From assembly GCF_001421165.1 (NCBI RefSeq), contig NZ_LMKB01000005.1, positions 1,259,709 through 1,323,708 on the forward strand: 64,000 nt of DNA, in the 5' to 3' direction. Below, piece after piece: positions 119 to 63,210 of the stretch. The translations under genes and the position numbers were made by a program. Source of the stretch: Frigoribacterium sp. Leaf8. Its GTDB lineage: Bacteria > Actinomycetota > Actinomycetes > Actinomycetales > Microbacteriaceae. How positions within the stretch are numbered: position 1 is the first letter of the stretch; every line of letters starts with the position of its first letter. The notes beneath the pieces were generated by a model. The model was not told the origin of the DNA. It searched no databases and was given only the letters and a program-made list of their open reading frames with translations.

Positions 119-895
119 TCAGCCGGCGGGCGCGACGACCACGTCGACGCCGGCGGCGGCGAACTCGGCCAGCGCCTCGGTCGTGGCCGTGGCGTCGGTC
201 ACGAGCGTCCAGCCCTCAGGCAGCGCCGCGCGGGCGTGGAACGTCGCGCGACCGAGCTTCGACCCGTCGGCCAGCACGTAGACGCGTTCGGACTGCCGGC
301 ACATCAGCTCTTTGAGCCGGGTCTGCACGAGGTCGGCCTCGACCACGTGGCCCGAGGCGAGCACGCCGTCGGCGCCGAGGAACACCCGGTCGAAGGTCAG
401 GCGCTCGAGGGCGGCCTCGGCCAGCGGCCCGACGAAGCCCTGGCTGGCCGGGCGCAGCGTGCCGCCGAGGCACTCGAGGTGGATGCCGTCCGAGTCGGCG
501 AGCTGCTGGATCACGGCGATCGAGGTGGTGGCGACGGTCGCGACGAGACCCGAGCGCGCCTCCCGGGCGAGGGCCGCGACCGACGAGCCGGCGTCGAACA
601 GCAGCGTCTCGCCGTCGTGGACCAGCGTGCGGGCGTGCCGCGCGATCTCGGCCTTGGCCACCCCGGCCTCGAGGTTGCGCTGACGGAAGGTCGGCTCGGC
701 ACCGGGGGCGCCGAGCGGCATGGCCCCGCCGTAGGTGCGGGCGATCTCGCCGCGCCGGGTGAGTTCGGCGAGGTCGCGGCGGATGGTCGACGGGGTCACC
801 TCGAAGCGACGACTCAGCTCGTCGACGCTCGCGAGGCCGGTGGTGTGGGCCAGGTCGACGATGTCGCGGCGTCGCTCGCGTGCCGTGGTGCTCAT
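119..895 (-). CDS. DeoR/GlpR-family transcriptional regulator
   Basis: A 258-aa regulator. The N-terminal winged helix (about residues 5-60) contains VDELSRRFEVTPSTIRRDL, the DeoR-family HTH. The C-terminal DeoRC domain shows LLFDAGSSVAALA, FLGADGV and YVLADGSKLG, the sugar-phosphate-binding fold of the family. It is the third gene of a minus-strand run after the acid-sugar kinase and PdxA2-type dehydrogenase, so it probably represses that locus in response to a phosphorylated intermediate (inference). The ATG just upstream is followed by an in-frame TGA, which fixes the start. The candidate operator is the TGCGCG cluster at 3320-3357. Confidence 0.88.
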   Translation of the reverse strand: MSTTARERRRDIVDLAHTTGLASVDELSRRFEVTPSTIRRDLAELTRRGEIARTYGGAMPLGAPGAEPTFRQRNLEAGVAKAEIARHARTLVHDGETLLFDAGSSVAALAREARSGLVATVATTSIAVIQQLADSDGIHLECLGGTLRPASQGFVGPLAEAALERLTFDRVFLGADGVLASGHVVEADLVQTRLKELMCRQSERVYVLADGSKLGRATFHARAALPEGWTLVTDATATTEALAEFAAAGVDVVVAPAG

Positions 896-943
896 GCGGT
901 GGTGCTCATGCGATGGCCGTCCTGATCGGTGGGGCGGGCGGCG

Positions 944-1987
944 TCACGCCGACGACGCACCGACCCGGGCGGCGTCGGCCGGGCTGGGCGACATCTCGAC
1001 CGCCTGGCGCAACGCCTCGATCATGCTACCGACGGCCACGACCCCGGTGCCGGCGATGTCGAACGCGGTGCCGTGGTCGACCGAGGTGCGGATCACGGGC
1101 AGTCCGACGGTGATGTTGACCCCCGCCTCGATGCCGAGCACCTTCACCGGGCCGTGGCCCTGGTCGTGGTACATCGCCACGATGAGGTCGTAGTCGCCGC
1201 GGCCGCCGAGGAAGAACGCGGTGTCGGCCGGCAGCGGCCCGACGGCGCGGATGCCGTCGGCCTGGAGCACCTCGAGGGCCGGGGTGATCTTCTCGGCCTC
1301 CTCGCCGTAGCCGAAGAGCCCGTTCTCGCCGGCGTGCGGGTTGATCGCGCAGACGCCGATCCTGGGGTCGTCGACGCCGGCCCGGCGCAGCGCCTCCCAG
1401 CCGCGGCGCACGGTGCGCTCGACGAGGCCGGGCTCGATCTTCGCGATGGCGTCGATCAGCCCGATGTGGGTCGTCACGTGGATCACCTTGATCTTGGGGG
1501 TCGAGAGCATCATCGACACCTCGCCGACGCCCATGAAGTGCGCCAGCAGCTCGGTGTGGCCGGGGAACACGTGGCCGGCCTCGTGCAGCGCCGCCTTGTT
1601 CAGCGGTGCGGTGCAGATGCCCTGCACGAGACCGGCCATGCCGAGCTCGCACGCGATGCGGATGTACTCGTACGCCGCGTGGCCGGCCTCGGCCGAGACG
1701 GCGCCCCAGGGCAGGTCGGCCGAGAGCAGGTGCGGGTCGACGACGTTGATGCGTCCGGGGGTGAAGACGGCGTCGGCGGGCCCGTCGACCTCGACGATCT
1801 CGGCGTCGACCCCGAGCGCGGCGGCGCCGAGCCGCAGGCGGTGGGCGTCCCCGACGACGACCGGTCGCGCGTCGCGGTAGGCGGCCTCGTCGAGCAGTGC
1901 GCCGACGGTGACCTCGGGTCCGACGCCGGCGCCGTCGCCCATGGTGACGGCGATGAACGGCCGCGTGTCGGGGGTCGTCGTGGTCAT
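944..1987 (-). CDS. PdxA2-type 4-phospho-sugar-acid dehydrogenase
   Basis: A 347-aa PdxA-superfamily NAD-dependent oxidative decarboxylase. Visible motifs are TMGDGAGVGPE near the N-terminus, CTAPLNKAALHEAG, GHTELLAHF, INPHAGENG, YHDQGHGPVK and the C-terminal VDHGTAFDIAGTG. The conserved metal-binding histidines lie in HVTTH and YHDQGH. PdxA2 proteins beside a DUF1537 kinase oxidise 4-phospho-D-threonate or erythronate to dihydroxyacetone phosphate. The start overlaps the kinase stop by 4 nt (ATGA), so the two are translationally coupled. This context favours acid-sugar catabolism over pyridoxine synthesis; exact substrate stereochemistry cannot be read from sequence. Confidence 0.85.
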   Translation of the reverse strand: MTTTTPDTRPFIAVTMGDGAGVGPEVTVGALLDEAAYRDARPVVVGDAHRLRLGAAALGVDAEIVEVDGPADAVFTPGRINVVDPHLLSADLPWGAVSAEAGHAAYEYIRIACELGMAGLVQGICTAPLNKAALHEAGHVFPGHTELLAHFMGVGEVSMMLSTPKIKVIHVTTHIGLIDAIAKIEPGLVERTVRRGWEALRRAGVDDPRIGVCAINPHAGENGLFGYGEEAEKITPALEVLQADGIRAVGPLPADTAFFLGGRGDYDLIVAMYHDQGHGPVKVLGIEAGVNITVGLPVIRTSVDHGTAFDIAGTGVVAVGSMIEALRQAVEMSPSPADAARVGASSA

Positions 1988-5032: not shown

Positions 5033-5968
5033 ATGGCGACCTACATCCTCAAGCGCCTCGGCCAGGGCCTGCTCACCGTGTTCCTCACGGTGTCGACGGT
5101 CTTCGTGCTGATCCGCCTCGCCCCCGGCGACCCGGCCGTGGCCTACGCCGGGCCGCTCGCGACCAACGAGCAACTCGCCGCCGTGCGCGAGCAGTTCGGC
5201 CTGGACGACCCGCTGCTCCAGCAGTACGGCGTGTTCCTGCAGCAGTTGTTCACGGGCAACCTGGGCACCTCGTACTCGTTCCAGGCACCGGCCGTGCAGG
5301 TCGTGCTCGAACGGCTGCCGTACACGCTGACCCTGTCGTTCGCGGCGATCCTGTTGGCGGCGGTCGTGTCGATCCCGCTCGGCGTCTGGATGGCCCGTCG
5401 CACCGACACCCGCAGCGAGACCGGCGTCAACGTCGTCGCCATCGCGGGCCAGTCGATGCCCGACTTCTGGACCGGCATCCTGCTGCTCAGCGCCTTCGCC
5501 GTCGTGATCCCGATCTTCCCGGCCTCGGGCTTCGCCACCTGGGGCGGCCTCGTGCTGCCGACGGTGACGATCGCCATCCTGCAGGTGGCCCTGATCTCCC
5601 GGCTCGTGCGCCGCGAGATGGCGACCAACTTCTCGGCGCCCTACCTGACCGTGGCCCGGTCGCGCGGCGTCTCGGAGCGCGCCCTGACCTGGCGCTACGC
5701 CATGGGCAACTCGGCGATCCCCGTCTTCACGGCCCTCGGCACGCGCTTCGCGGCGATGCTCAACGGCGTCGTCGTGGTCGAGGTCGTGTTCGCCTGGCCC
5801 GGCGTCGGGTCGCTCATCGTGCGGGCGCTCGAGACCCGCGACTACCCCCTCATCCAGGCGACCGTGCTGGTCACGTCGCTGCTCGCCGTCGGCGTCCAGC
5901 TGCTGATCGACCTCGCCTACCCCCTGCTCGATCCGCGCGTGCGGCTCGGAAAGGCGAGTGCCGCATGA
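5033..5968 (+). CDS. ABC transporter permease, DppB type
   Basis: A 311-aa inner-membrane permease with about six hydrophobic segments. The first helix follows MATYILKRLGQGLLTVFLTV and contains LIRLAPGDPA, characteristic of DppB/OppB. The cytoplasmic EAA-type loop is near APYLTVARSRGVSERALTWRYAMGN. The start is 2 nt after the binding-protein stop, and its own stop overlaps the next permease start. It should pair with the DppC-type permease to form the translocation channel. Confidence 0.92.
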   Translation: MATYILKRLGQGLLTVFLTVSTVFVLIRLAPGDPAVAYAGPLATNEQLAAVREQFGLDDPLLQQYGVFLQQLFTGNLGTSYSFQAPAVQVVLERLPYTLTLSFAAILLAAVVSIPLGVWMARRTDTRSETGVNVVAIAGQSMPDFWTGILLLSAFAVVIPIFPASGFATWGGLVLPTVTIAILQVALISRLVRREMATNFSAPYLTVARSRGVSERALTWRYAMGNSAIPVFTALGTRFAAMLNGVVVVEVVFAWPGVGSLIVRALETRDYPLIQATVLVTSLLAVGVQLLIDLAYPLLDPRVRLGKASAA

Positions 5969-7023
5969 CCCGCACCGAGACCACCGGACAGCCGTCCGGC
6001 ACGTCGACCGCCGGCGCGGCCGGTCGCACCCCCGAGGAGGCGCGACGCACCGCGGTCACGCCCCGCCTGCTGAAGAGGTCCGAGGCGGCCCGGCGGACCT
6101 CCGCCGCACGGGTGAAGCTCTGGGTCGGCGCGATCTGCGCCCTCGTGGTGATCATCCCGATCGTGCTGGCCCAGGCCCTCCCGCTGCCCGACGCGAACGG
6201 CCAGGACCTCGGCAACCGCCTCGCGCCTCCGTTCACCGCCGGCCACCTGTTCGGCACCGACCAGCTCGGTCGCGACCTGCTCTCGCGGGTGCTGCACGGC
6301 GGTCAGGTCTCGCTCGCGATCGGCGTGCTGGCGGTCATCGTCTCGGGCGCCATCGGCGTCGTCCTGGGCTCGATCGCCGGGTTCTACGGGCGCTGGGCCG
6401 ACACGCTGATCAGCCGCCTGCTCGAGGCCCAGATGTCGCTGCCGCTGCTGATGATGCTGCTGCTCGTCGTCGCCCTCTTCGGCCCGTCGATCCCGGTGAT
6501 CACCTTCGTCATCGCGATCGCGCAATGGCCGGAGGTGGCCCGCCTGACCCGGTCGCTCGTGCTCGTCGAACGCGAGAAGCCGTACGTCTCGTCGGCCCGC
6601 ACGCTCGGCCTGAACCGCTTCACGATCCTGCTGCGCCACGTCGTCCCGAACGTCATCAAGCAGGCGACGCTCGTCGTGCTGCTGCTGCTCGCGCAGGCCG
6701 TGCTGCTCGAGAGCGCCCTGAGCTTCCTCGGGGCCGGCCCGCAGCGACCGTTCGCGACCTGGGGCCGCATCATCTCGGACGGCCAGGACTACGTCACGAC
6801 CGCCTGGTGGATGGTGACGATCCCGGGTCTGTTCATCGTGCTGCTCGTCGTCGGGGTCAACCTGCTGGGCGACGCCCTGCGGGACCGGCCGCGCCGGTCG
6901 ACGGCCTCGCGCCTCCGTCGGTTCGTCGGGCTGCGCCCGTCGACCCCGGCCTCGACCCCGGCCTCGGCATCGACCCCGGCCCCGACCCCGACCCCGACCC
7001 CGCAGAAGGGAACGATCGCATGA
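5965..7023 (+). CDS. ABC transporter permease, DppC type
   Basis: A 352-aa permease. About 50 N-terminal cytoplasmic residues precede the first helix. GTDQLGRDLLSRVLHGGQVSL is the conserved DppC/OppC motif, and the EAA loop is at PYVSSARTLGLNRFTILLRHV. The last 30 or so residues form a low-complexity Ser/Thr/Ala/Pro tail encoded by hexanucleotide repeats (about 6946-7005), absent from typical DppC and probably dispensable. It overlaps both neighbours by 4 nt (ATGA). Confidence 0.92.
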   Translation: MTRTETTGQPSGTSTAGAAGRTPEEARRTAVTPRLLKRSEAARRTSAARVKLWVGAICALVVIIPIVLAQALPLPDANGQDLGNRLAPPFTAGHLFGTDQLGRDLLSRVLHGGQVSLAIGVLAVIVSGAIGVVLGSIAGFYGRWADTLISRLLEAQMSLPLLMMLLLVVALFGPSIPVITFVIAIAQWPEVARLTRSLVLVEREKPYVSSARTLGLNRFTILLRHVVPNVIKQATLVVLLLLAQAVLLESALSFLGAGPQRPFATWGRIISDGQDYVTTAWWMVTIPGLFIVLLVVGVNLLGDALRDRPRRSTASRLRRFVGLRPSTPASTPASASTPAPTPTPTPQKGTIA

Positions 7024-17962: not shown

Positions 17963-18673
17963 ATGTCCACCGTCGCCGAGACCTTCCTCCGCCGCCCGCA
18001 CGGGGTGCTCGAGTACGTCGCCGACGCGGTGCGCGTGGTCGCGGCCCTGAGCGTCGTCGTCGCGGGCATCGGCTGGGGCGTGGTCGAGATCGCCGTGCTG
18101 ATGCTGGCGCTGCTCGGCACCCTCGTGCCCCGCATGCTCGGCCTCCGGGCGAGCGTCGACCTGATGGTCGGCGTCGCCGCCCTGGGCGCCGCCTGGAGCA
18201 GCGTCTTCGAGCTCTACACCCGGGTCACGGGCTACGACACGGTGGTGCACTTCCTGCTCAACGGCCTGCTGGCCGCGGTGTTCGTGGTCCTCGCCCGGCG
18301 GGCCGGCTGGATCGCCTCGGCGGGCGAGACCGGTGGACGAGGAGGCGCGGGTCGCTCGGCCCGCGTCGGCTCAGTCCTGACGACGGTCGCGTTCGGCCTG
18401 GCGGCCGGCACCCTGTGGGAGATGGGCGAGTGGGCGGGCCACACCCTCGTCGACTCGGCGATCTTCGTCGGTTACGACGACACGATCGGCGACCTCGCCG
18501 CGGGAGGCCTCGGCTCGCTGCTGGCCGGGCTGGCGCTGCCGTTCCTCGTGGGGGGCGACGTCCGCGGCCGAGCCGCGCGCGCCTCCTCGTCCGGAGCCGA
18601 TGCCGGTGCCGGTGCCGACGGACCCGGGGTCGACGCCGTCGGCCACGGCCGCCCGCGCGTCCACCACCGCTGA
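17963..18673 (+). CDS. DUF2238-like (YjdF-type) membrane protein
   Basis: A 236-aa multi-pass membrane protein. VVHFLLNGLLAAV, TLWEMGEWAGH and GYDDTIGDLAAGGLGSLLAG match the YjdF/DUF2238 pattern (WE-x2-EW and GYDDTI-x-D). The start is 1 nt after the EEP stop. The last 40 or so residues are low complexity and are antisense to the conserved end of the glycosyltransferase gene: the two convergent genes overlap by 303 bp, so this tail is probably read-through. Function unknown. Confidence 0.75.
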   Translation: MSTVAETFLRRPHGVLEYVADAVRVVAALSVVVAGIGWGVVEIAVLMLALLGTLVPRMLGLRASVDLMVGVAALGAAWSSVFELYTRVTGYDTVVHFLLNGLLAAVFVVLARRAGWIASAGETGGRGGAGRSARVGSVLTTVAFGLAAGTLWEMGEWAGHTLVDSAIFVGYDDTIGDLAAGGLGSLLAGLALPFLVGGDVRGRAARASSSGADAGAGADGPGVDAVGHGRPRVHHR

Positions 18674-21985: not shown

Positions 21986-24583
21986 ATGCGCACGCCCCTG
22001 CTCCGCCTCGGCGCCCTGACCCTGGCCGGCTCGATCGCCGCCGCCGGGCTCGTGGCCACGAGCGCCCTGCCCGCCCTCGCGGCCGACGCCGACGTCGTCG
22101 TCAACGAGATCGACACGACCGACGACTGGGTCGAACTGCTCAACACCGGCCAGACCCCGACCGACGTGTCGGGCTTCGTGCTGCGGGACGACAAGGACAC
22201 GCGGACGCTCGCGCTGCCCGCGGGCACGGTCCTCGCCGCCGGCGAGCGCGTGGTCGTCGACGTCGCCGACGACGCCGTGTGGGGCGCCGCCGCCTACGGG
22301 CTCGGACGCGCCGACGCCGTCCGCCTCTACGCCGCCGACGGCACGACCCTGCTCGACTCGTACGCCTGGACGCAGTTCCCGACGACGACCTACGGCCGCT
22401 GCGCCGACGGCACCGGCGCGTTCGCGACGACGGCCGCCGGGACGCGAGGCACCGCCAACGAGTGCGCGACGACACCGGCTCCGACCGACCCGACGGACCC
22501 CGCCCCGACCGACCCGACGACCCCCGCCGTGCCCGCGACGACCGACGTCGTGATCAACGAGGTCGAGTCGAACGGCGACGACACCGACTGGGTCGAACTG
22601 ACGAACGTCGGGACGGTGCCCGTCGACGTCTCGGGCTACACCTTCCGCGACGAGGACGACGTGCGCACGCCCTTCACCCTGCCCACCGGTTCGGTCGTGC
22701 AGCCCGGCGCCTTCTTCGTGATCGACCAGGCCTCGGGCTCGAACCCGGTCGGCTTCGACTTCGGACTCGGCCAGCCCGACTCGGCACGCCTGTTCGACAC
22801 CGCGGGCACGCTCGTCGCCTCGTACGCCTGGAGCGTCCACAGCACCGTCAGCTACGGCCGCTGCCCCGACGGCACCGGCGAGCTGACGACGACGACCGCG
22901 ACCACGAAGGGCGCGGCGAACGACTGCTCGTCGCCCGTGCGCATCAACGAGGTCGAGAGCCAGGGAGGCGCGCCCGGCCACTGGGTCGAGCTCACGACCG
23001 TGAGCACCTCGTCGGTCGACCTCGGCGGCTACGTGCTGACCGACTCCGACCCGACGCATCGCTACGTCGTCCCCGCCGGGACCGTCGTCGCCCCCGGCGG
23101 CTTCGTCGTCCTCGACGAGCAGACCCCGACCTCGGCCGGCTTCGACTTCGGACTGGGCGGTGCCGACTCGGTGCGCCTGCTGCTGCCGGACGGCACGACG
23201 GCGGCCGACGGTTCGACCCTCGCCGACGAGTACTCGTGGACCTCGCACGCCGCCACCACCTACGGCCGCGGACCCGACGGCACGGGCGACTTCGCCGTCA
23301 CGTCGACCTCGACCAAGGGCTCGGCCAACACCTTCGCCGGCGTCTCCGTGCCGACGGCCTGGCCCGGCGGACCCGACGAGGTCCCCCTGGACGACGAGGG
23401 CACCTTCACCGGTGACCTGAGCGGTCTCGACTACGAGCCGACCGGCACCGCGACCCCCGGCACGCTCTGGGCGGTGCAGAACGGCGACGGCCTGCTCTAC
23501 CGGATCGTCCCGGACGGCGCCGGCGGGTGGGCCCCGCAGACGACCGACGGCTGGGCTGCCGGCAAGAAGCTGCTGTACCCGAGCGGGGTCGCGACCGACA
23601 TCGTGGACGCCGAGGGCGTCACGGTCGCCGACGACTCGTCCGCGGGCGGCGTCTACGTGTCGACGGAGCGCAACAACGCCTCGGGCTCGGTCAGCCGCCC
23701 CTCGGTGCTGCGCTACGACGCCGCGACCGCGAGCCCGGCCACGACCCTGGTCGCCACCGACGAGTGGAACCTCGCCGCGGACTTCCCCGGCCTGGGGGCC
23801 AACGCGGGCCTCGAGGGCATCACCTGGGTGCCCGACGCCTGGCTGACCGAGGCGGGGTTCGTCGACGAGGCGACCGGCGCCTCCTACGACCCCGCGACGT
23901 ACGCCGGCCACGGTGACGGGCTCTTCTTCGTCGGCGTCGAGGGCACCGCGAGCGTCTACGCCTACGCCCTGATGGACGACGGTTCGTTCGAGCGCGTCGC
24001 CACCATCGCGACGTCGTTCGCCCTGGTCGCCGACCTGCAGTTCGACGCCGACCTCGACGCGCTCTGGGTCGTCTGCGACGAGGCCTGCTCGGGCCGCACG
24101 GCGCTGTTCTCGGTCGACGAGTCGGGGGCGTTCGCCGAGGACGTCGTCCACGAGGCACCGGCGAACGCCGACCGCGGGCTCGCCAACGAAGGCTTCGCGA
24201 TCGCCCCGGCGGCGACGAGCGTCGACGGGTTCCGCCAGACGTTCTACGCGGACGACAACGACACCGACGGGTTCTCGCTGCGCGCCGGGACGTTCCCCGG
24301 CGTGGCGGCCGAGCCCGGGACGCCCGGCGACCCCGGCACCTCCGGGACGCCCGGCACCCCCGGGACGCCCGGCACCCCCGGCACGCCCGGCGACCCCGCT
24401 GCCCCCGCCGATCCCGGCACGGGCGTGACGCCGATCGGTCAGGGCTCGGGCCCGGCGACGGTCGACGGGCAGCTCGCCTTCACCGGTTCGGACGCCCGAT
24501 GGGCAGCGGCCGCGGCCCTGCTGCTCGTGCTCGCCGGGGCGGGCACCCTGATCGCCCGCCGGCGTCGACTCACCCGCGACTGA
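21986..24583 (+). CDS. Sortase-anchored lamin-tail/phytase-like surface protein
   Basis: An 865-aa exported protein. The signal peptide ends near ALPALAADA. Three lamin-tail domains follow, opening VVVNEIDTTDDWVELLN, VVINEVESNGDDTDWVEL and VRINEVESQGGAPGHWVEL. From about residue 470 a propeller resembles the esterase-like phytase domain (NAGLEGITWVPD, LANEGFAIAP). A Gly/Pro/Thr stalk (PGTPGTPGTPG) leads to LAFTG, a hydrophobic helix and RRRR, a class E (LAxTG) sortase signal. Start chosen at MRTPLLRLG. PHO-box-like repeats upstream suggest induction by phosphate starvation. No sortase gene is in the window. Confidence 0.85.
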   Translation: MRTPLLRLGALTLAGSIAAAGLVATSALPALAADADVVVNEIDTTDDWVELLNTGQTPTDVSGFVLRDDKDTRTLALPAGTVLAAGERVVVDVADDAVWGAAAYGLGRADAVRLYAADGTTLLDSYAWTQFPTTTYGRCADGTGAFATTAAGTRGTANECATTPAPTDPTDPAPTDPTTPAVPATTDVVINEVESNGDDTDWVELTNVGTVPVDVSGYTFRDEDDVRTPFTLPTGSVVQPGAFFVIDQASGSNPVGFDFGLGQPDSARLFDTAGTLVASYAWSVHSTVSYGRCPDGTGELTTTTATTKGAANDCSSPVRINEVESQGGAPGHWVELTTVSTSSVDLGGYVLTDSDPTHRYVVPAGTVVAPGGFVVLDEQTPTSAGFDFGLGGADSVRLLLPDGTTAADGSTLADEYSWTSHAATTYGRGPDGTGDFAVTSTSTKGSANTFAGVSVPTAWPGGPDEVPLDDEGTFTGDLSGLDYEPTGTATPGTLWAVQNGDGLLYRIVPDGAGGWAPQTTDGWAAGKKLLYPSGVATDIVDAEGVTVADDSSAGGVYVSTERNNASGSVSRPSVLRYDAATASPATTLVATDEWNLAADFPGLGANAGLEGITWVPDAWLTEAGFVDEATGASYDPATYAGHGDGLFFVGVEGTASVYAYALMDDGSFERVATIATSFALVADLQFDADLDALWVVCDEACSGRTALFSVDESGAFAEDVVHEAPANADRGLANEGFAIAPAATSVDGFRQTFYADDNDTDGFSLRAGTFPGVAAEPGTPGDPGTSGTPGTPGTPGTPGTPGDPAAPADPGTGVTPIGQGSGPATVDGQLAFTGSDARWAAAAALLLVLAGAGTLIARRRRLTRD

Positions 24584-27440: not shown

Positions 27441-28706
27441 ATGCGATCCCCCCTCCTCACGACCTGCCTGCTCGGCACGCTCGCCCTCGGGCTGACCGCC
27501 TGCTCGACCGACACCTCGCCGGGCGGCGACCCCGCCGCCGGGACGACGGCCGACGAGACCGGCGCCAGCGGCGAGGGCCACGGCGCCGTCGCGGGCGCCG
27601 AGGAACTCGCCGAGCCCCGTCTCGGCCTCACCACGATCGACCCGTCGGGCACGGTCGCCCACCTCGACCTGCTCGACGAGGGCGTCGTCGAGCTCGGGTC
27701 GGTCGACGCCCCCACCGCCGTGGAGACCGACGGGCGGTACCTGTTCGCCGAGACCACCGGCGGCCTCGAGGTCGTCGACAGCGGGGTCTGGACGTGGGAC
27801 CACGGGGACCACTTCCACTACTACCGGGCCGACCCGCGCCTCCTCGGCACCGTCGAGGGCGACGGCGCGGCGACCGTCGCGACCACGAACCTGTCGACCT
27901 CGGGTTCGACCGGCGTGCACTTCGCCGGCTCGGGCGACGCCGTGCTGCTCGACACCGAGGCGCTGTCGCGGGGCGAGCTGCGGGAGCGGTTCCGACTCGA
28001 CGGCGAACCGGGCACCGGCATGGTCGTCCCCGTGGGCTCGTACGCCCTGGTGACCGAGGGGCGCGGCGAGGCGACGACGCTCGTCGGACGGACCGCCGAC
28101 GGTGACGAGACGGGCCTGCGCGAGGCCTGCCCGGACGCCTCGGGCACGATCACGACCCGCGTCGGGGCGGTCGTCGGCTGCTCGGACGGCGCCCTGCTCG
28201 CGACCGTCGCCGACGACGAGCTCGTCGTCGAACGCATCCCCTACCCGGCCGGCTCGACCCCGTCGTCGGGCGGCACGGCGGCCCCGGCCACCTCGTTCGA
28301 CAACCGGGAGGGGCGACCCACCGTGGCCGGGCTCGCCGGCTCCGCGGGCGTCTGGCTGCTCGACACCCGGGCCCGGGCCTGGACGCTGCTGCCGGCACCG
28401 ACCCCGCTGGTCACGGTGACCGCCGTGGACGACGCCGACCAGCGCCTCCTCGCCCTCGCCCGGGACGGCCGCGTGCTCGTCCTCGACGGCGCCACCGGCC
28501 AGGTCGTCGCCGAGACCGCGCCGCTCGTCGCGGACTCGCTCGCCGCGGGCCGGACGCCGACGCTGATCGCCGACCAGCAGCGCGCGTACCTCTCGGCCCC
28601 GGTCGAAGGGCGGCTGTACGAGATCGACGCCGCCGACGGCGCGCGGATCGCCCGCAGCTTCGAGACGGCGGGCGAGCCGGCCTTCGTCGCGGAGACGGGT
28701 CGATGA
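27441..28706 (+). CDS. aztD: AztD-like zinc chaperone lipoprotein, paralogue 1
   Basis: A 421-aa exported protein with lipobox LTAC and a Gly/Ala/Asp linker. The remainder looks like a beta-propeller of short GxVxVLDxxTG-like strands. VWTWDHGDHFHYYRADPRLLG contains a His/Asp cluster like the zinc site of AztD chaperones. C-terminal RVLVLDGATGQVVAETAPL completes the propeller. It is followed by aztC with a 4-nt overlap. AztD proteins hand zinc to AztC in the extracytoplasmic space. Confidence 0.75.
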   Translation: MRSPLLTTCLLGTLALGLTACSTDTSPGGDPAAGTTADETGASGEGHGAVAGAEELAEPRLGLTTIDPSGTVAHLDLLDEGVVELGSVDAPTAVETDGRYLFAETTGGLEVVDSGVWTWDHGDHFHYYRADPRLLGTVEGDGAATVATTNLSTSGSTGVHFAGSGDAVLLDTEALSRGELRERFRLDGEPGTGMVVPVGSYALVTEGRGEATTLVGRTADGDETGLREACPDASGTITTRVGAVVGCSDGALLATVADDELVVERIPYPAGSTPSSGGTAAPATSFDNREGRPTVAGLAGSAGVWLLDTRARAWTLLPAPTPLVTVTAVDDADQRLLALARDGRVLVLDGATGQVVAETAPLVADSLAAGRTPTLIADQQRAYLSAPVEGRLYEIDAADGARIARSFETAGEPAFVAETGR

Positions 28707-29665
28707 GGGCGCCGTCGACGGCCCGCCGCCGGGCCGGGCTCGCCACCGCCAGCCGCAGCACCGCCGCCCGCGTCGCCGCTGTCGCCGTCGCGGCCGCGCT
28801 GGCCCTGACCGGCTGCGCACCCGCCGGCGACGACCGTCCGGTCGTGTTCGTGTCGACGAACATCCTCGGCGACGTCGTCGACGAACTGGTCGGCGACCAG
28901 GCCGAGGTCGTCACCCTGATGAAGCCGGACGCCGACCCGCACTCGTTCGAGATCTCGGCGCAACAGGCGGCACGGATGCGGGCGGCCGACCTCGTCGTCT
29001 CGAACGGCCTCGGCCTCGAGGAGGGGCTGCAGCAGCACCTCGACGCGGCGGTCGACTCCGGCGTGGCCTCGTTCGTCGCCGCGGACGCGATCGACGTCCT
29101 CGACTACCGCGACGGGGACGCCGCCGGCACCCCCGACCCGCACTTCTGGACCGACCCGGGCCGCATGCTCGACGTCGTCGACGCCCTCGGGCCCGTGCTC
29201 GCCGAGGTCGACGGCGTCGACGCCGCGGGGCTCACCGCGCGCACCACCGACTACCGGGCCGACCTCGAGCGACTCGACGCCGACATGGTCGACGCCTTCG
29301 CCGCGATCCCCGCCGAACGGCGCGCACTCGTGACGAACCACCACGTCTTCGGCTACCTCGCCGACCGGTTCGACTTCGACGTCGTCGGGGCCGTGATCCC
29401 CGGCGGCACGACGCTCGCGGCGCCGTCGGCATCCGACCTCGCCGACCTGGTCGACGCCGTCGAGACGACGGGCGTCCCGACCGTGTTCGCCGAGTCGTCC
29501 TCGCCCGACCGACTCGTGCAGGCCCTGGCGAGCGAGGCGGACGTCCACGTCGACGTGGTCGAGCTCTTCACCGAGTCGCTCACCGCGGCCGACGGGGACG
29601 CCCCCGACTACCTGACCATGATGCGCGTCGACACCGAGCGCATCGCCACCGGACTCTCCCCGTGA
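28703..29665 (+). CDS. aztC: Zinc-binding lipoprotein AztC
   Basis: A 320-aa cluster A-I metal-binding protein with lipobox LTGC. MKPDADPHSFEISAQQAARM contributes the first His ligand, DPHFWTDPGRM the second, LVTNHHVFGYLADRF the third, and an acidic residue near VFAESSSPDRLVQALASEA the fourth. Lacks the long His-rich loop of ZnuA, as do many AztC proteins. It sits between two AztD-like genes. Confidence 0.85.
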   Translation: MRAPSTARRRAGLATASRSTAARVAAVAVAAALALTGCAPAGDDRPVVFVSTNILGDVVDELVGDQAEVVTLMKPDADPHSFEISAQQAARMRAADLVVSNGLGLEEGLQQHLDAAVDSGVASFVAADAIDVLDYRDGDAAGTPDPHFWTDPGRMLDVVDALGPVLAEVDGVDAAGLTARTTDYRADLERLDADMVDAFAAIPAERRALVTNHHVFGYLADRFDFDVVGAVIPGGTTLAAPSASDLADLVDAVETTGVPTVFAESSSPDRLVQALASEADVHVDVVELFTESLTAADGDAPDYLTMMRVDTERIATGLSP

Positions 29666-29694
29666 GCGTCCGACCACCAGAAAGAGGAACACCC

Positions 29695-30924
29695 ATGCGC
29701 ACCACCCACCTGCGACGGACCGGCGGCACGCTGCTCGCCCTCGGCGTCGCCGCGACCCTCGTCGCCTGCTCGACCGGCGGACCCGGCTCCGCGTCCGACG
29801 CGACGGGCGGCGCCGCCGCGACCGGCGCCTCCTCGTCCGGCCCCCGCCTCGCCGTCTCGTCCGAGGGCCGCGTCACCGTGCTCGACGGCGAGACCCTCGA
29901 GACCGTCGGCGCGTTCGACTCCGAGGAGTTCACCCGCCTCAACCCGGCCGGCGACGGCCGACACGTCATGGTCACGACGAGCGGAGGGTTCCAGGTGCTC
30001 GACACGGCGGCCGGCAGCTCGTCCGAGCCCGCCCTGACCGACCTCGTGTTCGACGCCGACACCGCGGGCCACGTCGTCCGGCACGGCGGCAAGACGATCC
30101 TCTACGCCGACGGCACGAGCGACACCACGGTGTTCGAGTCCGCCGACCTGACCGACGCCGTCACCGACGGCGAGCTGCCCGCGGTCGAGACGATCGAGGG
30201 CGTCGAGGCCCACCACGGCGTCTCGGTCGTGCTCGAGGACGGCACCTTCCTCACGACGGTCGGCGACTCCGACGGCCGCACGGGCATCCAGGTGCGCGAC
30301 GCCGACGGTGCGGTCGTCGCGCAGAGCGACGAGTGCCCGGGCGTCCACGGCGAGGGCACCGCGGCCGACGAGGCCGTCGTCCTCGGCTGCGAGGACGGAG
30401 CGCTCGTCTACCACGACGGGACGATCACCAAGCTCGCCTCGCCCTCGCAGCCCTACGGCCGCATGGGCAACGCGTACGTCAGCGAGACCAGCCCGCTCGT
30501 CGTCGGCGACCACAAGGACGACCCCGACGCCGAGGGCTACCTGCTGCACGCGGTCACCCTGATCGACACGGCCGCCGACACCCTCGACGTCGTCGACCTG
30601 CCCGAGGGCGTCGAGTACACCTTCCGGGGCGTCGCCCGCGGCCCGGGCGACCTCGCGTACCTGATCGGCACCGACGGCGCCGTGCACGTGCTCGACCCCG
30701 CGACCGGCGAACTCACGGCGTCGTGGCCCGTGATCGGCGCCTGGGAGGGCCCGGCCGAGTGGCAGGACGCCCACCCCGCGATCGTCGTCGCGGGTGACGT
30801 CGGCTACGTCACCGAGCCGGCGACGGACAGCGTGCACGCGGTCGACCTGACCACGGGCGAGGTGCTGTCGTCGCGCGAGCTCGACGTCACGCCCAACGAG
30901 GTCGCGGTGGCCACGGCCGACTGA
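29695..30924 (+). CDS. AztD-like zinc chaperone lipoprotein, paralogue 2
   Basis: A 409-aa lipoprotein (lipobox LVAC) with a Gly/Ser/Ala linker and an AztD-like beta-propeller: GHVVRHGGKTILYADG, EAHHGVSVVLEDG, CPGVHGEG, CEDGALVYHDGTI and VHVLDPATGELTASWPV. It lacks the HGDHFHYY cluster of paralogue 1, so its metal site must differ. Start: ATG at 29695 after AAAGAGGA. It is last in the azt operon and is followed by a strong hairpin. Confidence 0.78.
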   Translation: MRTTHLRRTGGTLLALGVAATLVACSTGGPGSASDATGGAAATGASSSGPRLAVSSEGRVTVLDGETLETVGAFDSEEFTRLNPAGDGRHVMVTTSGGFQVLDTAAGSSSEPALTDLVFDADTAGHVVRHGGKTILYADGTSDTTVFESADLTDAVTDGELPAVETIEGVEAHHGVSVVLEDGTFLTTVGDSDGRTGIQVRDADGAVVAQSDECPGVHGEGTAADEAVVLGCEDGALVYHDGTITKLASPSQPYGRMGNAYVSETSPLVVGDHKDDPDAEGYLLHAVTLIDTAADTLDVVDLPEGVEYTFRGVARGPGDLAYLIGTDGAVHVLDPATGELTASWPVIGAWEGPAEWQDAHPAIVVAGDVGYVTEPATDSVHAVDLTTGEVLSSRELDVTPNEVAVATAD

Positions 30925-30943: not shown

Positions 30944-30975
30944 AGGAGGCGCGGTGCGAGGGCACCGCGCCTCCT
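30944..30975 (+). terminator. azt operon terminator (conserved stem family)
   Basis: Stem AGGAGGCGCGGTGC (30944-30957) with GCACCGCGCCTCCT (30962-30975), 20 nt after the stop. The 17-nt left arm AGGAGGCGCGGTGCGAG is identical to those at 41928, 62021 and 63172. The remaining gap to 31231 is GC-rich (CCGGCC-type) with no gene seen. Confidence 0.8.
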
Positions 30976-33218: not shown

Positions 33219-34325
33219 CTACTCCCGACCCATGCGGCCCGACGCCCGCGGCAGCGTGACCTCGATCGTCGTGCCCGCGCCCGACGTCGTCACGACCCGG
33301 ACCTCGCCGCCGTGGCGGTGGGCGATCTCGCGGACGAGGGCGAGACCGATGCCGAAGCTCGGACGCACCGGGGCCGAGGTCTGGCCCGACGGCGACTCGG
33401 CCCGGGCGAAGCGGTCGAAGACGCGCGCGGGGTCGATCCCGATGATGCCGAGCCCCTGGTCGGCGACCGTGATCACCACGCTCGCCGCCTCGCCCCGGCC
33501 CTCGACCCGGACGGTCGTCACGACCACCGACCCCACGGGCGCATGGCCGAGGGCGTTGTCGACCAGGGCGAGGACCGACCGTCGCAGGCTCGTCCGCGGC
33601 ACTGCGACCCGCGCCTCCTCGCCGCCGGGGACCAGCTCGAGACGGACGTCACGCTGGTCGGCCAGCACGGCCAGGGACGAGAGGACCTCGGCCACCACGG
33701 CGTCCACGCCGACGGCCCCGAGGACGTCCCCGGGGTGGTCCTCGCCCCCGGCGGCCTCCAGCAGGTCGCCGACGATGTCGATCAGGGCCCGGGAGTCGTC
33801 CCGGAGGTGCGCGACGTCCGACGCGACCTTCTCGTCCGCCGACACCGCGCCTCCGGAGATCCCGCGTTCGAGGGCCTGGAGGCGCGCGTCGAGGACGGCC
33901 AGCGGGGTGCGCAACTCGTGGCTCGCGTCGGCGACGAACCGACGCTGCAGGCGCAGGGCGTCGCCGAGCGGTCGGACGGCCCGCCGCGCGATGACGACGC
34001 TCACGACCCCGGCGAAGACGACACCGGCGAGCCCGAGCACGACCAGGCCGGCCACCACGTCGGTGGCGCTCACGAAGACCTCGCCGCGCCGCGCCGCCGC
34101 GACCTGCTCGAGTCGCTCGGTCGGCACCGTCTGGTGCAGTACCCACGCGATCGTCAGCGTGAGAGCGGCCACGACCACCACGGCGGAGACGAGCACGATC
34201 TGACGACCGACCGACCGAGCCGCCGCCTGGAGCGCCACCGCGTCGGGGTCCGGCCGCCGCACGCTCGGGGTGGCGCCGGGGCGACGTCGACCGCGCCCCG
34301 CTGCTCGGCGGGATCGCGCGGTCAC
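33219..34325 (-). CDS. Sensor histidine kinase (OmpR-partner type)
   Basis: A 368-aa membrane kinase. Two hydrophobic segments (about 42-62 and 88-110) flank a short extracytoplasmic loop of about 25 residues, so it may sense within the membrane. The H-box is RFVADASHELRTPLAVLD, the N-box LALVDNALGHAP, the G-box ITVADQGLGI and the G2/F region FGIGLALVREIAHRHGG. Its start overlaps the response-regulator stop (ATGA). Co-transcribed with pap2 and dedA, it may monitor lipid carrier or envelope stress (inference). Confidence 0.9.
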   Translation of the reverse strand: MTARSRRAAGRGRRRPGATPSVRRPDPDAVALQAAARSVGRQIVLVSAVVVVAALTLTIAWVLHQTVPTERLEQVAAARRGEVFVSATDVVAGLVVLGLAGVVFAGVVSVVIARRAVRPLGDALRLQRRFVADASHELRTPLAVLDARLQALERGISGGAVSADEKVASDVAHLRDDSRALIDIVGDLLEAAGGEDHPGDVLGAVGVDAVVAEVLSSLAVLADQRDVRLELVPGGEEARVAVPRTSLRRSVLALVDNALGHAPVGSVVVTTVRVEGRGEAASVVITVADQGLGIIGIDPARVFDRFARAESPSGQTSAPVRPSFGIGLALVREIAHRHGGEVRVVTTSGAGTTIEVTLPRASGRMGRE

Positions 34326-35609: not shown

Positions 35610-36415
35610 GGGGCGTTCCGTTCGGTGTCGGGTGCCGTCAGGGCACCGGGTGGTGTGGTGGCAGGTCGGTCGAGTCGGTCGAGTCGGTCGAGTCGGTCGA
35701 CGATCCGTCGCCAGAGGGGCAGGGCGAGGGCGACGACCGAGCAGCCGAGCACCACCGACGCGATCGTGTCGGTGGGGTAGTGCACGCCGATCCAGACGCG
35801 GGAGGCCGCCACCAGGACGACGCCGAGCGCGGCCACGACGGCGACCGGCTGCCACCCCCGCCGTCCGTTCCGTCCTCTCACGACGAGCACGATCGCCAGG
35901 GCGAGGCCGGTCGCCAGCGCGGTGTGGCCGCTGGGGAACGAGAACGAGTGCGGTTCGACCAGCAGGGGGTCGACGAGGAGGCGCGGGTCGGGTCGGTCGC
36001 GTCCGACGACCAGCTTGACGGTCTCGGCCGCAGCCCACGGCAGCACCGAGACGCCGACGACGGTCAGCGCCTCCGCTGCCCGCCGGGTCGTCACCCCCAC
36101 GGCGACGGCCAACAGCAGGACGAGCGCCACCCCGAGCTGCGGCCCGAGCAGCCGGTCGATCAGCAGCGCCGCCCCGTCGAGCAGGGGCGAGTGCATCCGG
36201 CCGACGCGCTCGACGACGTCGAGGTCGGCCGCCCCCACTCCCCCGGCGCCCGACGTGATGAGCAGACCTCCCAGGACGACCGCCACGACGCCCGCCCCAC
36301 CCGCCGCCGCGATCCCGACGTCGCGGCGGACCGGCCGACGGTCGGGACGAGGGTCAGGAGGCGCGGGTCGTCCACCCCGGGACGTCACCGGGGGCCTTCC
36401 GTCGAGTGCGGTCAT
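35606..36415 (-). CDS. PAP2-family phosphatase
   Basis: A 269-aa membrane phosphatase with about six helices. The three catalytic motifs are KLVVGRDRPDPR, FPSGHTALA and SRVWIGVHYPTD. Such enzymes dephosphorylate undecaprenyl pyrophosphate or phosphatidic-acid-type lipids. The C-terminus has a DRLDRLDRL run from the 9-nt repeat at 35666-35701. Start: ATG at 36415; earlier in-frame codons lie in the intergenic hairpin. First gene of the four-gene operon. Confidence 0.88.
   Translation of the reverse strand: MTALDGRPPVTSRGGRPAPPDPRPDRRPVRRDVGIAAAGGAGVVAVVLGGLLITSGAGGVGAADLDVVERVGRMHSPLLDGAALLIDRLLGPQLGVALVLLLAVAVGVTTRRAAEALTVVGVSVLPWAAAETVKLVVGRDRPDPRLLVDPLLVEPHSFSFPSGHTALATGLALAIVLVVRGRNGRRGWQPVAVVAALGVVLVAASRVWIGVHYPTDTIASVVLGCSVVALALPLWRRIVDRLDRLDRLDRPATTPPGALTAPDTERNAP
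35666..35701. repeat. 9-bp tandem repeat in pap2
   Basis: Four near-perfect copies of TCGGTCGAG, encoding Asp-Arg-Leu repeats after the last membrane helix. In-frame and potentially variable in copy number. Confidence 0.85.
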
Positions 36416-41925: not shown

Positions 41926-41974
41926 CGCAGGAGGCGCGGTGCGAGTCCTCGGGACCGGCACCGCGCCTCCTGCG
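41926..41974 (+). terminator. SDR terminator (conserved stem family)
   Basis: Perfect 17-bp stem 41926-41942/41958-41974 with an inner GTCC/GGAC stem. It includes AGGAGGCGCGGTGCGAG at 41928-41944, the arm shared with three other hairpins. Its right half (41945-41975) is repeated exactly at 43097-43127. Confidence 0.82.
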
Positions 41975-44469: not shown

Positions 44470-44508
44470 CCCGGGCCGGCCGGTGCCGGACTCGTGCGCC
44501 CGGTCGCA

Positions 44509-44630
44509 CCGCGCCTCCTCGCGCCGCGCCTCCTCGCCCGCCGCGCCGCGCCTCCTCGCCCGCTCTTGCCGCGCCTCCTCGCCCGCTCTTGCCGCGCCTC
44601 CTCGCCCGCTCTCGCCGCGCCTCCTCGCCC
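44509..44630. repeat. 23-nt tandem array, block A
   Basis: Six copies of CCGCGCCTCCTCG, the last ones spaced at a 23-nt period with CCCGCTCTTGC-type fillers. Each copy contains CGCGCCTCC. Non-coding. Confidence 0.85.
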
Positions 44631-44632
44631 GT

Positions 44633-44700
44633 GTCGCACCGCGAACTGAGCGTCGCACCGCCGATTTGCGCGGTGCGACGTCCAGTCGGCGGTGCCGCAC
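44633..44700. repeat. 68-nt palindromic element, copy A
   Basis: GTCGCACCGC at the left, inner GTCGCACCGCC paired with GCGGTGCGAC, and GGCGGTGCCGCAC at the right. It differs from 44820-44887 at only about five positions. It separates two blocks of the 23-nt array. Confidence 0.8.
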
Positions 44701-44818
44701 CTCCTCGCCCGCTCTCGCCGCACCTCCTCGCCCGCTCTCGCCGCGCCTCCTCGCCCGCTCTCGCCGCACCTCCTCGCCCGCTCTCGCCGCGCCTCCTCGC
44801 GCCGCGCCTCCTCGCCCG
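44697..44818. repeat. 23-nt tandem array, block B
   Basis: Six units, alternating CGCACCTCCTCG and CGCGCCTCCTCG with CCCGCTCTCGC fillers at a 23-nt period. Non-coding. Confidence 0.85.
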
Positions 44819-44819
44819 G

Positions 44820-44887
44820 GTCGCACCGCGTACTGAGCGTCGCACCGCCCATTTCGGCGGTGCGACGTCCAGTCGGCGGTGCCGCAC
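44820..44887. repeat. 68-nt palindromic element, copy B
   Basis: The second copy of the element at 44633. Its inner dyad is GTCGCACCGCC...GGCGGTGCGAC. It ends the array; a GAGGTC hexamer run follows at 44917-44940. Confidence 0.8.
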
Positions 44888-44937
44888 CGCCCCTGTCGAT
44901 GCAACGCCCCGCAGTCGAGGTCGAGGTCGAGGTCGAG

Positions 44938-45003
44938 GTCGCACCACCGTCGCGTCATCGCACCACCGTGTTGCGTGGTGCGACGACACGACGGTGGTGC
45001 GAC
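44938..45003. repeat. 66-nt nested palindrome, copy 3
   Basis: Outer arms GTCGCACCACCGTCG and CGACGGTGGTGCGAC, inner arms TCGCACCAC and GTGGTGCGA. At element position 24/43 it has C-G where copies 2 and 4 have A-T. It is followed by AGCCACG-type degenerate repeats (45041-45088) up to the methyltransferase start. Confidence 0.85.
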
Positions 45004-45103
45004 TCCGGCTCCGACTCCGATTCAGACCCCGACCCCGGCCGCGAGCCACGAGCCACAAGCCACGAGCCACGAGCCCCGAGCCACGACTCCTAGGCTGCGG
45101 GGC

Positions 45104-60304: not shown

Positions 60305-60341
60305 CGTGATCTTCCTGTGCGGGTCGTGGTCGGTGGTGAGG

Positions 60342-60887: not shown

Positions 60888-61095
60888 GTCTACGATCCTC
60901 GCCGCGGGGCCCGGTACCGGAACATCACGTGCACCCACGGACCCGCGCGGGGGTTATCCCCCGGTGGCCCCCACTCCGTCCACAGCGGGAGTCGGTCGTA
61001 CCGGTCGGTGTCGTAGGGTCGAGAGCAGGTCCGGCACGCAGACGTCCGGACGGACGACGGACGGGGCACTCCCCTCCGGGAACGAGGGGGACATC

Positions 61096-61575: not shown

Positions 61576-61811
61576 GCGTCGTGGAGGTCAGCACCGTCGT
61601 CGTCGTCGGCCTGATCGTCGCCGTCGGCGTCGTGGCCGCCGTCGGCGTCGTCCGGCGCGGACGACGTGACCGGGCGATCGCCGCCCGCCTCGACGCCACC
61701 GACCCCGGGGCCGGGGTCCGTGCCCAGGCCGAGGCGGAACGCCGACACGAGGCCCCTCGAGGCGAGGCGGGCGGCATGTCCCGTTCGGCCGGCGGCAAGA
61801 ACTCGGCCTGA
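61572..61811 (+). CDS. Small single-helix membrane protein
   Basis: A 79-aa protein: one hydrophobic N-terminal helix (VVVVGLIVAVGVVAAVGVV) followed by a charged, probably cytoplasmic tail. GTG start in a GTGA overlap with the previous gene, so translation is coupled. Function unknown. Confidence 0.65.
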   Translation: MSVVEVSTVVVVGLIVAVGVVAAVGVVRRGRRDRAIAARLDATDPGAGVRAQAEAERRHEAPRGEAGGMSRSAGGKNSA

Positions 61812-62019
61812 CCCGCGTCGAGCTGGGAACACGATCGCCGACGGACGCGTACTGTCACACGGGTCGAAGGCGTTTTCTTGCGTCTTCATTGGCCGGTGTT
61901 GCTTGCATCCCTGCCCGTGAAGCTCATGCGACAACATCGGCATCTGGGGCACGGCTACGGACTCTTCCGCGGCCGTGCCCCTCTCTCGTGCCCGGGCGGG
62001 CCGCAGGTGCGGCCGACGC
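61812..62019. other. Gene-free, comparatively AT-rich interval
   Basis: No gene seen. The stretch 61865-61945 (around GGCGTTTTCTTGCGTCTTC) is noticeably less GC-rich than its surroundings and precedes a strong hairpin at 62020, a layout compatible with a small RNA. No known riboswitch or 6C RNA could be matched. Confidence 0.35.
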
Positions 62020-62060
62020 AAGGAGGCGCGGTGCGAGCCCCCTTCGCACCGCGCCTCCTT
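62020..62060 (+). terminator. Hairpin of the conserved stem family
   Basis: Perfect 17-bp stem AAGGAGGCGCGGTGCGA (62020-62036)/62044-62060 with a 7-nt C-rich loop. The arm AGGAGGCGCGGTGCGAG (62021-62037) is shared with 30944, 41928 and 63172. Confidence 0.8.
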
Positions 62061-62162
62061 CATGGGCGCTTCATCGGAGGCGCAGGGCCGGCGCATCGGG
62101 ACGGGCTCCAGGATGACGGTGATCCCATCCGAGGCGACCAGCCCCGAGCCGAGAGCGTGACC

Positions 62163-63146
62163 ATGAGCGACCCCCGCCCGACCCGCATCCCCGAACCCGA
62201 CCGCACGCCCGAGGGCCCTGCCTACGAGGGCCGACTGCTCGACCGCGTCGACGACGAGGTCGTCGACCAGGGCGTCGCCTTCGACCTGCGGACGCTCGTC
62301 TCGCGCCGCAGCGTGCTGGGCCTGATCGGGCTCGGGGCGGGCAGCGTCGTGCTCGCCGCCTGCACGTCGGCCACGGGGGCGGGCGGGACCGGCGCCTCCT
62401 CGACCGCCACGGCGTCGCCGAGCCCGAGCGCCTCCGCGGGCGCGGCCACCACGCTGCCGGCGGGCGAGATCCCCGACGAGACCGCCGGGCCCTACCCTGG
62501 CGACGGCTCGAACGGAGCCGACGTGCTCGAGCGGTCGGGCATCGTGCGCAGCGACATCCGGTCGAGCCTCGACGGTGGCACCACCGCGGCGGGGGTGCCG
62601 ATCACGCTGAGCATGACGGTGCTCGACATGGCGAACGGCGACGTGCCGTTCGCCGACGTCGCCGTCTACGTCTGGCACTGCGACGCGGCCGGCGGGTACT
62701 CGATGTACTCGGACGGCATCACGGGCGAGACCTACCTGCGCGGCGTGCAGGTCGCCGACGCCTCCGGCACCGTGACCTTCTCGTCGGTCTTCCCGGCCTG
62801 CTACTCGGGGCGATGGCCGCACGTCCACTTCGAGGTCTACCCCGACGTGGGGTCGATCACCGATTCGACGAACGCGATCGCGACGTCCCAGCTCGCCCTG
62901 CCCGAGGACGCGTGCCGCGCCGTCTACGCGCTCTCGGACTACGACGGTTCGACGGCCAACCTCGGGCGGGTCAGCCTCGCCGACGACAACGTCTTCAGCG
63001 ACGACAGCGGGGCACTCCAGCTGCCGTCGGTGACGGGCGACGCGACGTCGGGCTACGCACTGGCGCTGACCGTCCGCGTCGACACGGGGACGACGCCCAC
63101 CGCCGGCACCGCACCCGGTGGCGGTGGCGCCCCCGGCTCGCGCTGA
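62163..63146 (+). CDS. Intradiol-dioxygenase-like exported protein
   Basis: A 327-aa protein. About 50 acidic N-terminal residues precede SRRSVLGLIGLGAGSVVLAAC, a Tat-like motif plus lipobox. The catalytic domain shows DETAGPYPGDGSN, VPITLSMTVLDM, VYVWHCDAAGGYSMYS and RWPHVHFEVYPD, the Tyr/His iron-site context of intradiol ring-cleavage dioxygenases. A surface-anchored version may open catechol-type rings outside the cell. The C-terminal PTAGTAPGGGG tail is low complexity. Confidence 0.82.
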   Translation: MSDPRPTRIPEPDRTPEGPAYEGRLLDRVDDEVVDQGVAFDLRTLVSRRSVLGLIGLGAGSVVLAACTSATGAGGTGASSTATASPSPSASAGAATTLPAGEIPDETAGPYPGDGSNGADVLERSGIVRSDIRSSLDGGTTAAGVPITLSMTVLDMANGDVPFADVAVYVWHCDAAGGYSMYSDGITGETYLRGVQVADASGTVTFSSVFPACYSGRWPHVHFEVYPDVGSITDSTNAIATSQLALPEDACRAVYALSDYDGSTANLGRVSLADDNVFSDDSGALQLPSVTGDATSGYALALTVRVDTGTTPTAGTAPGGGGAPGSR

Positions 63147-63171
63147 GCCGCTGAGACCTCATGGCGACGGA

Positions 63172-63210
63172 AGGAGGCGCGGTGCGAGACCTCCTCGCAC
63201 CGCGCCTCCT
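63172..63210. terminator. Terminator of the conserved stem family
   Basis: Perfect 17-bp stem AGGAGGCGCGGTGCGAG (63172-63188)/63194-63210 with a 5-nt loop, between the convergent dioxygenase and GH16 stops. Confidence 0.85.

What the first reader, a model, noticed from the sequence alone, without database searches (positions are those of the whole stretch)
555..63209. Genome-scale 9-mer GGAGGCGCG, about 60 copies in and between genes
By eye I count 27 copies of GGAGGCGCG and about 36 of CGCGCCTCC. Plus-orientation examples: 2395, 6036, 8127, 18341, 35977, 45918, 60846. Reverse-orientation examples: 555, 8819, 12518, 27835, 33610, 36474, 60236. From base composition alone (assuming about 72% GC) roughly five are expected on both strands. 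Many copies extend to CGAGGAGGCGCGGGTCG. Inside genes the motif adds Glu-Glu-Ala-Arg or Arg-Ala-Ser-Ser, often in linkers. This fits a selected DNA word (Chi-like, chromosome-architecture or restriction/methylation-related) or a spreading micro-element.
Basis: partly seen in the sequence, partly recalled or inferred. Interest (0 to 1): 0.85.

Follow-up and report, generated by a model that had tools for sequence, protein, structure and literature searches.

The report
Genus-wide conserved DNA word in Frigoribacterium
A nine-letter DNA word is repeated about two thousand times, in genes and in hairpins between them, across the genome of a Frigoribacterium, and it is kept so faithfully between species that something in the cell probably reads it, perhaps as other bacteria read a password when they take up DNA.

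Summary
Confirmed and extended. GGAGGCGCG occurs 65 times in the window (6.7 expected) and 2,180 times in the 3.33-Mb genome (reversed word 112). The genus is Frigoribacterium. AGGAGGCGCGG has 383-1,239 copies in the 15 Frigoribacterium genomes and 0-26 in the 45 others. It is not codon usage: synonymous shuffling gives 38.5 coding copies against 187. Copies are orientation-blind (153/155), 3.6-fold denser between genes, and often paired into hairpins. Over four Frigoribacterium genome pairs it is the most conserved of 2,504 9-mers tested (137/167, class mean 0.28). So it is a selectively maintained recognition word, most like a DNA uptake sequence. I do not file it as one: three genomes in one clade lack the type IV pilus, and the one pair tested there still conserves the word (62/85 against 0.213). 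RecBCD-Chi, replication-polar words and an inserting micro-element are not supported. The reader protein is unknown. Similar-looking words in other genera were not shown to be the same system; one candidate was withdrawn.

The parts
555..63209 (.). The whole set: 65 copies of GGAGGCGCG, 27 plus and 38 minus
   Evidence: one search lists every position
30945..30974 (.). Inward pair of words in a gap between co-directional genes; predicted hairpin, -32.1 kcal/mol
41930..41970 (.). Inward pair of words between convergent genes; predicted hairpin, -38.2 kcal/mol
62022..62058 (.). Inward pair of words in a gap between co-directional genes; predicted hairpin, -35.2 kcal/mol
63173..63209 (.). Inward pair of words between convergent genes; predicted hairpin, -38.0 kcal/mol
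44504..44888 (-). Tandem array (units of 23 and 46 bp among others) with nine copies of the word at 44510-44811, all minus; two of the nine are gapped in the same-species genome G060
18341..18349 (+). Single intergenic copy in the form CGAGGAGGCGCGGGTCG
36357..36365 (+). Single intergenic copy, followed by GGTCG; one substitution in G009
6036..6044 (+). Copy inside a called gene (5965-7023, plus)
33610..33618 (-). Copy inside a called gene (33219-34196, minus)
22964..22972 (+). Copy without the preferred A in front; changed by one substitution in G060 and in G011

Best explanation
GGAGGCGCG (optimum AGGAGGCGCGG) is a genus-specific recognition word of Frigoribacterium, kept by selection or by biased recombination and read in either orientation by an unidentified sequence-specific protein. 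Its most likely use is to mark self DNA for exchange: fragments that carry the word are taken up or recombined preferentially, and that keeps it at about one copy per 1.5 kb, as DNA uptake sequences are kept in Neisseriaceae. Intergenic inverted pairs would double as transcription terminators. Shown: abundance, genus restriction, sharp core, orientation symmetry, intergenic and hairpin enrichment, conservation between species. Inferred: that a protein reads it, the uptake or exchange role, and terminator activity.
For: 2,180 copies in 3.33 Mb. Restricted to the 15 Frigoribacterium among 60 genomes. Single-base variants of the 11-mer at positions 2-6 and 9 occur 0-3 times each against 155 perfect copies. 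No strand polarity: 153/155, heterogeneity p 0.88. 3.6-fold denser between genes, 6.4-fold for the 11-mer. Inward pairs 23, outward 8, same strand 10; 19 of 21 intergenic inward pairs lie in co-directional or convergent gaps. Conserved at aligned sites: 27/29, 35/38, 17/18, 62/85, 13/15 against controls 0.458, 0.348, 0.700, 0.213, 0.276; first of 2,504 9-mers. ComEC in 15/15, comEA next to comEC in this genome, a type IVa pilus locus in this genome. Neisserial DUS show the same density, strict conservation and pairs in terminators (PMC2397512, sections read).
Against: The three Frigoribacterium genomes without pilins or PilC (G002, G003, G006) form one clade and keep 945, 1,152 and 879 11-mers, more than several pilus-bearing species (383-634); in G002 against G003 the word is still conserved, 62/85 against 0.213. 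ComEC is also in nearly all relatives without the word (39 of 40 genomes). Five other-family genomes with type IV pilins showed no comparable word in 60 kb each. Flp pilins (PF04964) found in 0 of 15. One small pair shows little excess conservation (G012 against G001, 3/6 against 0.422), and within the species the excess is small (60/65 against 0.889). No uptake or competence data exist here; no paper on competence in the genus was found.
Confidence: 0.38

Rival explanations
1. HIP-like word: a site whose copies are created or protected by a sequence-dependent process inside the cell, such as methylation linked to mismatch repair, without DNA uptake.
For: The word persists and is conserved without the type IV pilus. 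In cyanobacteria an abundant conserved word goes with matching orphan methyltransferases, and alternative words replace it in some lineages (PMC4390886, abstract and outline seen).
Against: HIP words are palindromic and this one is not. No methylation data; methyltransferases were not searched. Inward hairpin pairs are not a feature I know of HIP words (recalled).
Confidence: 0.3
2. Binding site of a chromosome-organising or other DNA-binding protein, spread through the chromosome.
For: Orientation-blind, genome-wide, slightly more even spacing than random (CV 0.80-0.90), conserved.
Against: Such proteins with a strict site are known to me with far fewer sites (recalled); no candidate protein identified.
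Confidence: 0.15
3. Chi-like word that regulates a recombination nuclease.
For: GC-rich, short, over-represented, with the word differing between genera.
Against: No strand polarity. RecC absent from 15 of 15 Frigoribacterium genomes and found in 3 of 30 genomes searched. AddAB and AdnAB not tested.
Confidence: 0.06
4. Primarily a transcription terminator or REP-like hairpin element, with coding copies secondary.
For: 21 intergenic inward pairs with stable predicted stems; 38 of 44 outer flanks begin with T.
Against: 187 of 308 copies are coding, most copies are unpaired, and there is no long T run (T fraction 0.26). Coding copies alone are five times the codon-shuffled number.
Confidence: 0.05
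5. A mobile micro-element that inserts copies.
For: A tandem array and paired hairpins exist.
Against: Information falls off outside about 11 bp. Non-conserved aligned sites are substitutions/gapped: G060 3/2, G005 2/0, G011 3/0, G009 1/0, G002-G003 19/4. Unaligned sites could hide insertions.
Confidence: 0.03
6. An artefact of base composition or codon usage.
For: The window is about 73% G+C and shuffled genes already give 38.5 coding copies.
Against: 187 coding copies observed; 11-mer 71 against 6.8; other high-GC genera lack it; site-level conservation.
Confidence: 0.01

Closest known systems
DNA uptake sequences of Neisseriaceae (DUS) and uptake signal sequences of Pasteurellaceae (USS)
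   Same: Hundreds to thousands of copies, one per 1-1.5 kb; both orientations; stringent conservation at aligned sites; inverted pairs in terminator positions. In Neisseria about 1,900 copies in 2.2 Mb, mean spacing about 1,150 nt, 97 percent identity against about 85 (PMC2397512).
   Different: Gram-positive actinobacterium; uptake not shown; the word is kept in a clade without the type IV pilus; 61 percent of copies are in genes (187/308) against 34-42 percent in Neisseria; no dialect in another genus established.
Highly iterated palindrome HIP1 of cyanobacteria
   Same: Abundant short GC-rich word; related genomes can use other words (PMC4390886 abstract).
   Different: HIP1 is palindromic and goes with known methyltransferases; this word is not palindromic and no methyltransferase was tested.
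Chi sites and FtsK-orienting (KOPS) words
   Same: Short, over-represented, genome-wide (recalled).
   Different: Those are skewed with replication (recalled); this word is 153/155 with no regional skew, and RecC is absent.

Membership tests
DUS/USS | Hundreds to thousands of near-identical short copies | tested here: met
   2,180 9-mers, 1,106 11-mers in this genome
DUS/USS | Conserved at orthologous positions beyond the surroundings | tested here: met
   weak in G012-G001 (3/6) and within the species
DUS/USS | Frequent inverted pairs at gene ends forming terminator-like hairpins | tested here: met
   21 intergenic inward pairs, 19 in co-directional or convergent gaps; termination itself not tested
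DUS/USS | Maintained together with the uptake pilus | tested here: not met
   pilus-lacking clade keeps the word; one pair tested
DUS/USS | Related dialects in sister genera | tested here: inconclusive
   GGATGCCG is abundant elsewhere but hardly conserved in Microbacterium; Curtobacterium candidate withdrawn
DUS/USS | Raises uptake or transformation of DNA that carries it | not testable with these tools
   needs a bench assay
HIP | Palindromic word | tested here: not met
   GGAGGCGCG differs from its reverse complement CGCGCCTCC
HIP | Matching methyltransferase | not tested
   no methylation data; no methyltransferase search made
Chi | Strand bias with replication | tested here: not met
   153/155, heterogeneity p 0.88 over 20 stretches with copies
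Chi (RecBCD) | RecBCD present | tested here: not met
   RecC 0 of 15; AddAB and AdnAB not tested
KOPS | Strong replication polarity | tested here: not met
Mobile repeat (REP/MITE) | A longer constant unit present or absent as an insertion | tested here: not met
   unaligned sites not covered

The most novel reading that the evidence does not exclude
Frigoribacterium has the first DNA uptake or self-recognition sequence in a Gram-positive lineage, read by a receptor that does not need the type IV pilus.
Probability: 0.25. Interest if true: 0.87.

Novelty: new variant of a known kind. Interest (0 to 1): 0.62.

Why it matters
Uptake words that let a cell tell self DNA from foreign are described for Pasteurellaceae and Neisseriaceae (PMC7811141, abstract in listing). 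A word of the same density and conservation in a Gram-positive genus makes it testable whether such words arise only with pilus-driven uptake; the clade that lacks the pilus and keeps the word is a natural control. My searches of an open-access library (listings only) showed no report of it.

Tried and rejected
Rejected: codon or composition artefact. Replication-polar word. RecBCD-Chi. Type IV pilus as the factor that explains the word: no link inside the genus, and in 60-kb samples (one of 40 kb) of twelve genomes of other families the only strong word was in G053, which has no pilin hit. Flp pili: PF04964 in 0 of 15 Frigoribacterium genomes; other pilin families were not searched.

Withdrawn: a Curtobacterium 'dialect'. 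CGGGAGGCCC looked abundant and conserved in 5 loci, but those are loci around the same gene, so shared copies were counted repeatedly; in 199 family genomes the highest count is 87 against 34 reversed (which handles are Curtobacterium is not shown). The Leifsonia and Janibacter words rest on the same kind of loci and are not claimed. GGATGCCG in Microbacterium is conserved 302/996 against 0.226, while another word, CGATGCCG, reached 199/528 = 0.377.

Led nowhere: one hairpin against phages (6 records, none covering 80 percent), a window stretch against plasmids (none), viral contigs (100 and 75 stretches, each listed one with a single match; of 175 loci held, the densest above 4 kb has 3 copies in 4.25 kb), position along genes (roughly flat, 24 of 176 in the first tenth). 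Coding copies are more often antisense (114) than sense (75), unexplained. One search timed out and one search had a syntax error; both were rerun in corrected form.

Full report
GGAGGCGCG occurs 65 times in the window, 27 plus and 38 minus, against 6.7 in dinucleotide shuffles. Nine copies lie in one tandem array. The window is part of a 3,328,572-base genome of 12 contigs with 1,102 forward and 1,078 reverse copies; the reversed word has 68 and 44. That is one copy per 1.5 kb. The 14-mer GGAGGCGCGGGTCG alone has 328 copies, its reversed control 1.

Organism. A DNA ligase of the window matches Frigoribacterium sp. VKM Ac-2836 at 89 percent and the other 79 loci kept at 70 percent or less. G011, same genus by the tool, has a contig of exactly the length of that record's contig. 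So the genus is Frigoribacterium.

Genus restriction. In the 60 genomes, AGGAGGCGCGG has 383 to 1,239 copies in all 15 Frigoribacterium genomes, where the reversed control has at most 27. In the 45 others it has 0 to 26, about like the control (0 to 60).

Shape of the word. In 451,662 bases (the window and 20 spread stretches) the 11-mer occurs 155 times against 1.3 under a third-order Markov model. Single-base variants at positions 2 to 6 and 9 occur 0 to 3 times each, near chance; positions 7 and 8 keep a few (up to 9 and 5), and positions 1, 10 and 11 are soft (up to 31). The recognised unit is thus about 8 strict bases with preferred neighbours. In G007 the base in front is G (0.43) more often than A (0.26).

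Not codon usage. Shuffling synonymous codons within each called gene gives 38.5 coding copies (sd 6.8, maximum 56) against 187 observed; for the 11-mer 6.8 against 71. The reversed word goes the other way, 12 observed against 32.7. Genes were called with my own simple codon-usage script, so coding fractions are approximate. Coding copies fall in all six frame and strand classes, 3 to 59 each.

Where it sits. Of 308 copies 187 are coding, 119 intergenic, 2 partial. Density between genes is 3.6 times that in genes, 6.4 times for the 11-mer. Neighbours within 70 nt are inward pairs 23 times, outward 8, same-strand 10 (inward against outward p 0.011). Twenty-one inward pairs lie in intergenic gaps, 12 co-directional, 7 convergent, 2 divergent, with predicted stems of -24.8 to -54.6 kcal/mol; the outer word is fixed and the inner stem differs from pair to pair. 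The base outside the stem is T in 38 of 44 flanks, but the T fraction over 10 nt is only 0.26.

No polarity. Forward and reverse are 153 and 155 and no sampled stretch departs from balance (p 0.88), unlike what is recalled for Chi and FtsK-orienting words.

Conservation. At aligned sites the 9-mer is unchanged in 60/65 against the same-species genome G060 (control 9-mers with one A/T: 0.889), 27/29 against G005 (0.458), 35/38 against G011 (0.348) and 17/18 against G009 (0.700); 0, 36, 27 and 47 of the 65 sites did not align. Conservation peaks on the word. In the comEC region G000 against G014 gives 13/15 against 0.276 and G012 against G001 only 3/6 against 0.422. Over four genome pairs pooled (window-G011, window-G005, G002-G003, G000-G014) it is the most conserved of 2,504 9-mers seen at least 20 times (137/167, class mean 0.28), and its 8-mer the most conserved of 3,757. 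Changes are mostly substitutions.

Uptake machinery. ComEC is found in 15/15 Frigoribacterium genomes and in 39 of the 40 genomes searched, so it does not explain the genus restriction. In the window's genome a ComEA-like gene precedes comEC. A type IVa pilus locus holds PilM- and PilT-family proteins above their curated cut-offs, strong PilB and PilC matches below theirs, and prepilin-type proteins; PilN, PilO and a prepilin peptidase are my reading of their position and sequence. Pilins are found in 12 of 15 Frigoribacterium genomes, PilC in 13 of 16. The three without, G002, G003 and G006, form one clade with support 1.000 in a tree of 14,112 columns. They keep 945, 1,152 and 879 11-mers. 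In G002 against G003, 180 kb each, 62 of 85 aligned sites are conserved against 0.213, and 60 of 82 against 0.208 the other way; G006 was not in that test. The pilus is thus not what maintains the word there. This is the main result against a standard uptake sequence.

Other words. GGATGCCG reaches 2,906 and 2,931 copies in G015 and G023 (reversed 145 and 217). It is not enriched between genes there (ratios 1.1 and 0.2), and in Microbacterium is hardly more conserved than controls. G053, of another family, has GTATGCCG 36 times against 1.8 in 60 kb. These are leads, not evidence of one system.

Verdict. That this is a selectively maintained, genus-specific recognition word is well supported (about 0.95, my estimate). 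That it marks self DNA for uptake or exchange is the best single reading (0.38), because density, symmetry, hairpin pairs and strict conservation match uptake sequences (PMC2397512, sections 7 and 8 read; PMC3630211, abstract and section 6 read; PMC2346458, abstract only). The pilus result keeps me from filing it there. A methylation- or repair-linked word is next at 0.3 (PMC4390886, abstract and outline).

Noticed in passing
genomes G015, G020, G022, G023, G036: The word GGATGCCG has 1,604-2,931 copies in these other genera of the family against 83-217 for the reversed word; not enriched between genes in the samples of G015, G020 and G023.
   Followed up: partly
L182-L184 (genome G053, another family): GTATGCCG occurs 36 times in 60 kb against 1.8 expected, 2.3-fold denser between genes.
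   Followed up: no
L195 (Microbacterium phage Efeko, 17,491 bases): 13 copies of GGATGCCG (reversed word 1), while three other phages of 39-46 kb have 5, 6 and 5.
   Followed up: no
L132:8699-12184: The comEC reading frame (1,161 aa) also carries a DNA polymerase III delta C-terminal domain (PF21694) at its end: a fusion, or two genes run together in one frame.
   Followed up: no
window 27441-30924: AztC-like and AztD-like zinc-transport proteins, with a second, divergent AztD-like protein in front.
   Followed up: no
window 21986-24583: Large protein with Lamin Tail Domain matches and a weak LAVTG sortase-type end.
   Followed up: no
window 44914-44941 and 45038-45086: Two further short tandem arrays, units GTCGAG and GCCACGA, beside the word's own array.
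   Followed up: no
L030 (Frigoribacterium sp. VKM Ac-2836): In this 21-kb locus GGTACGTACC and GATCCGGTAC occur 8 times each, a separate local repeat.
   Followed up: no
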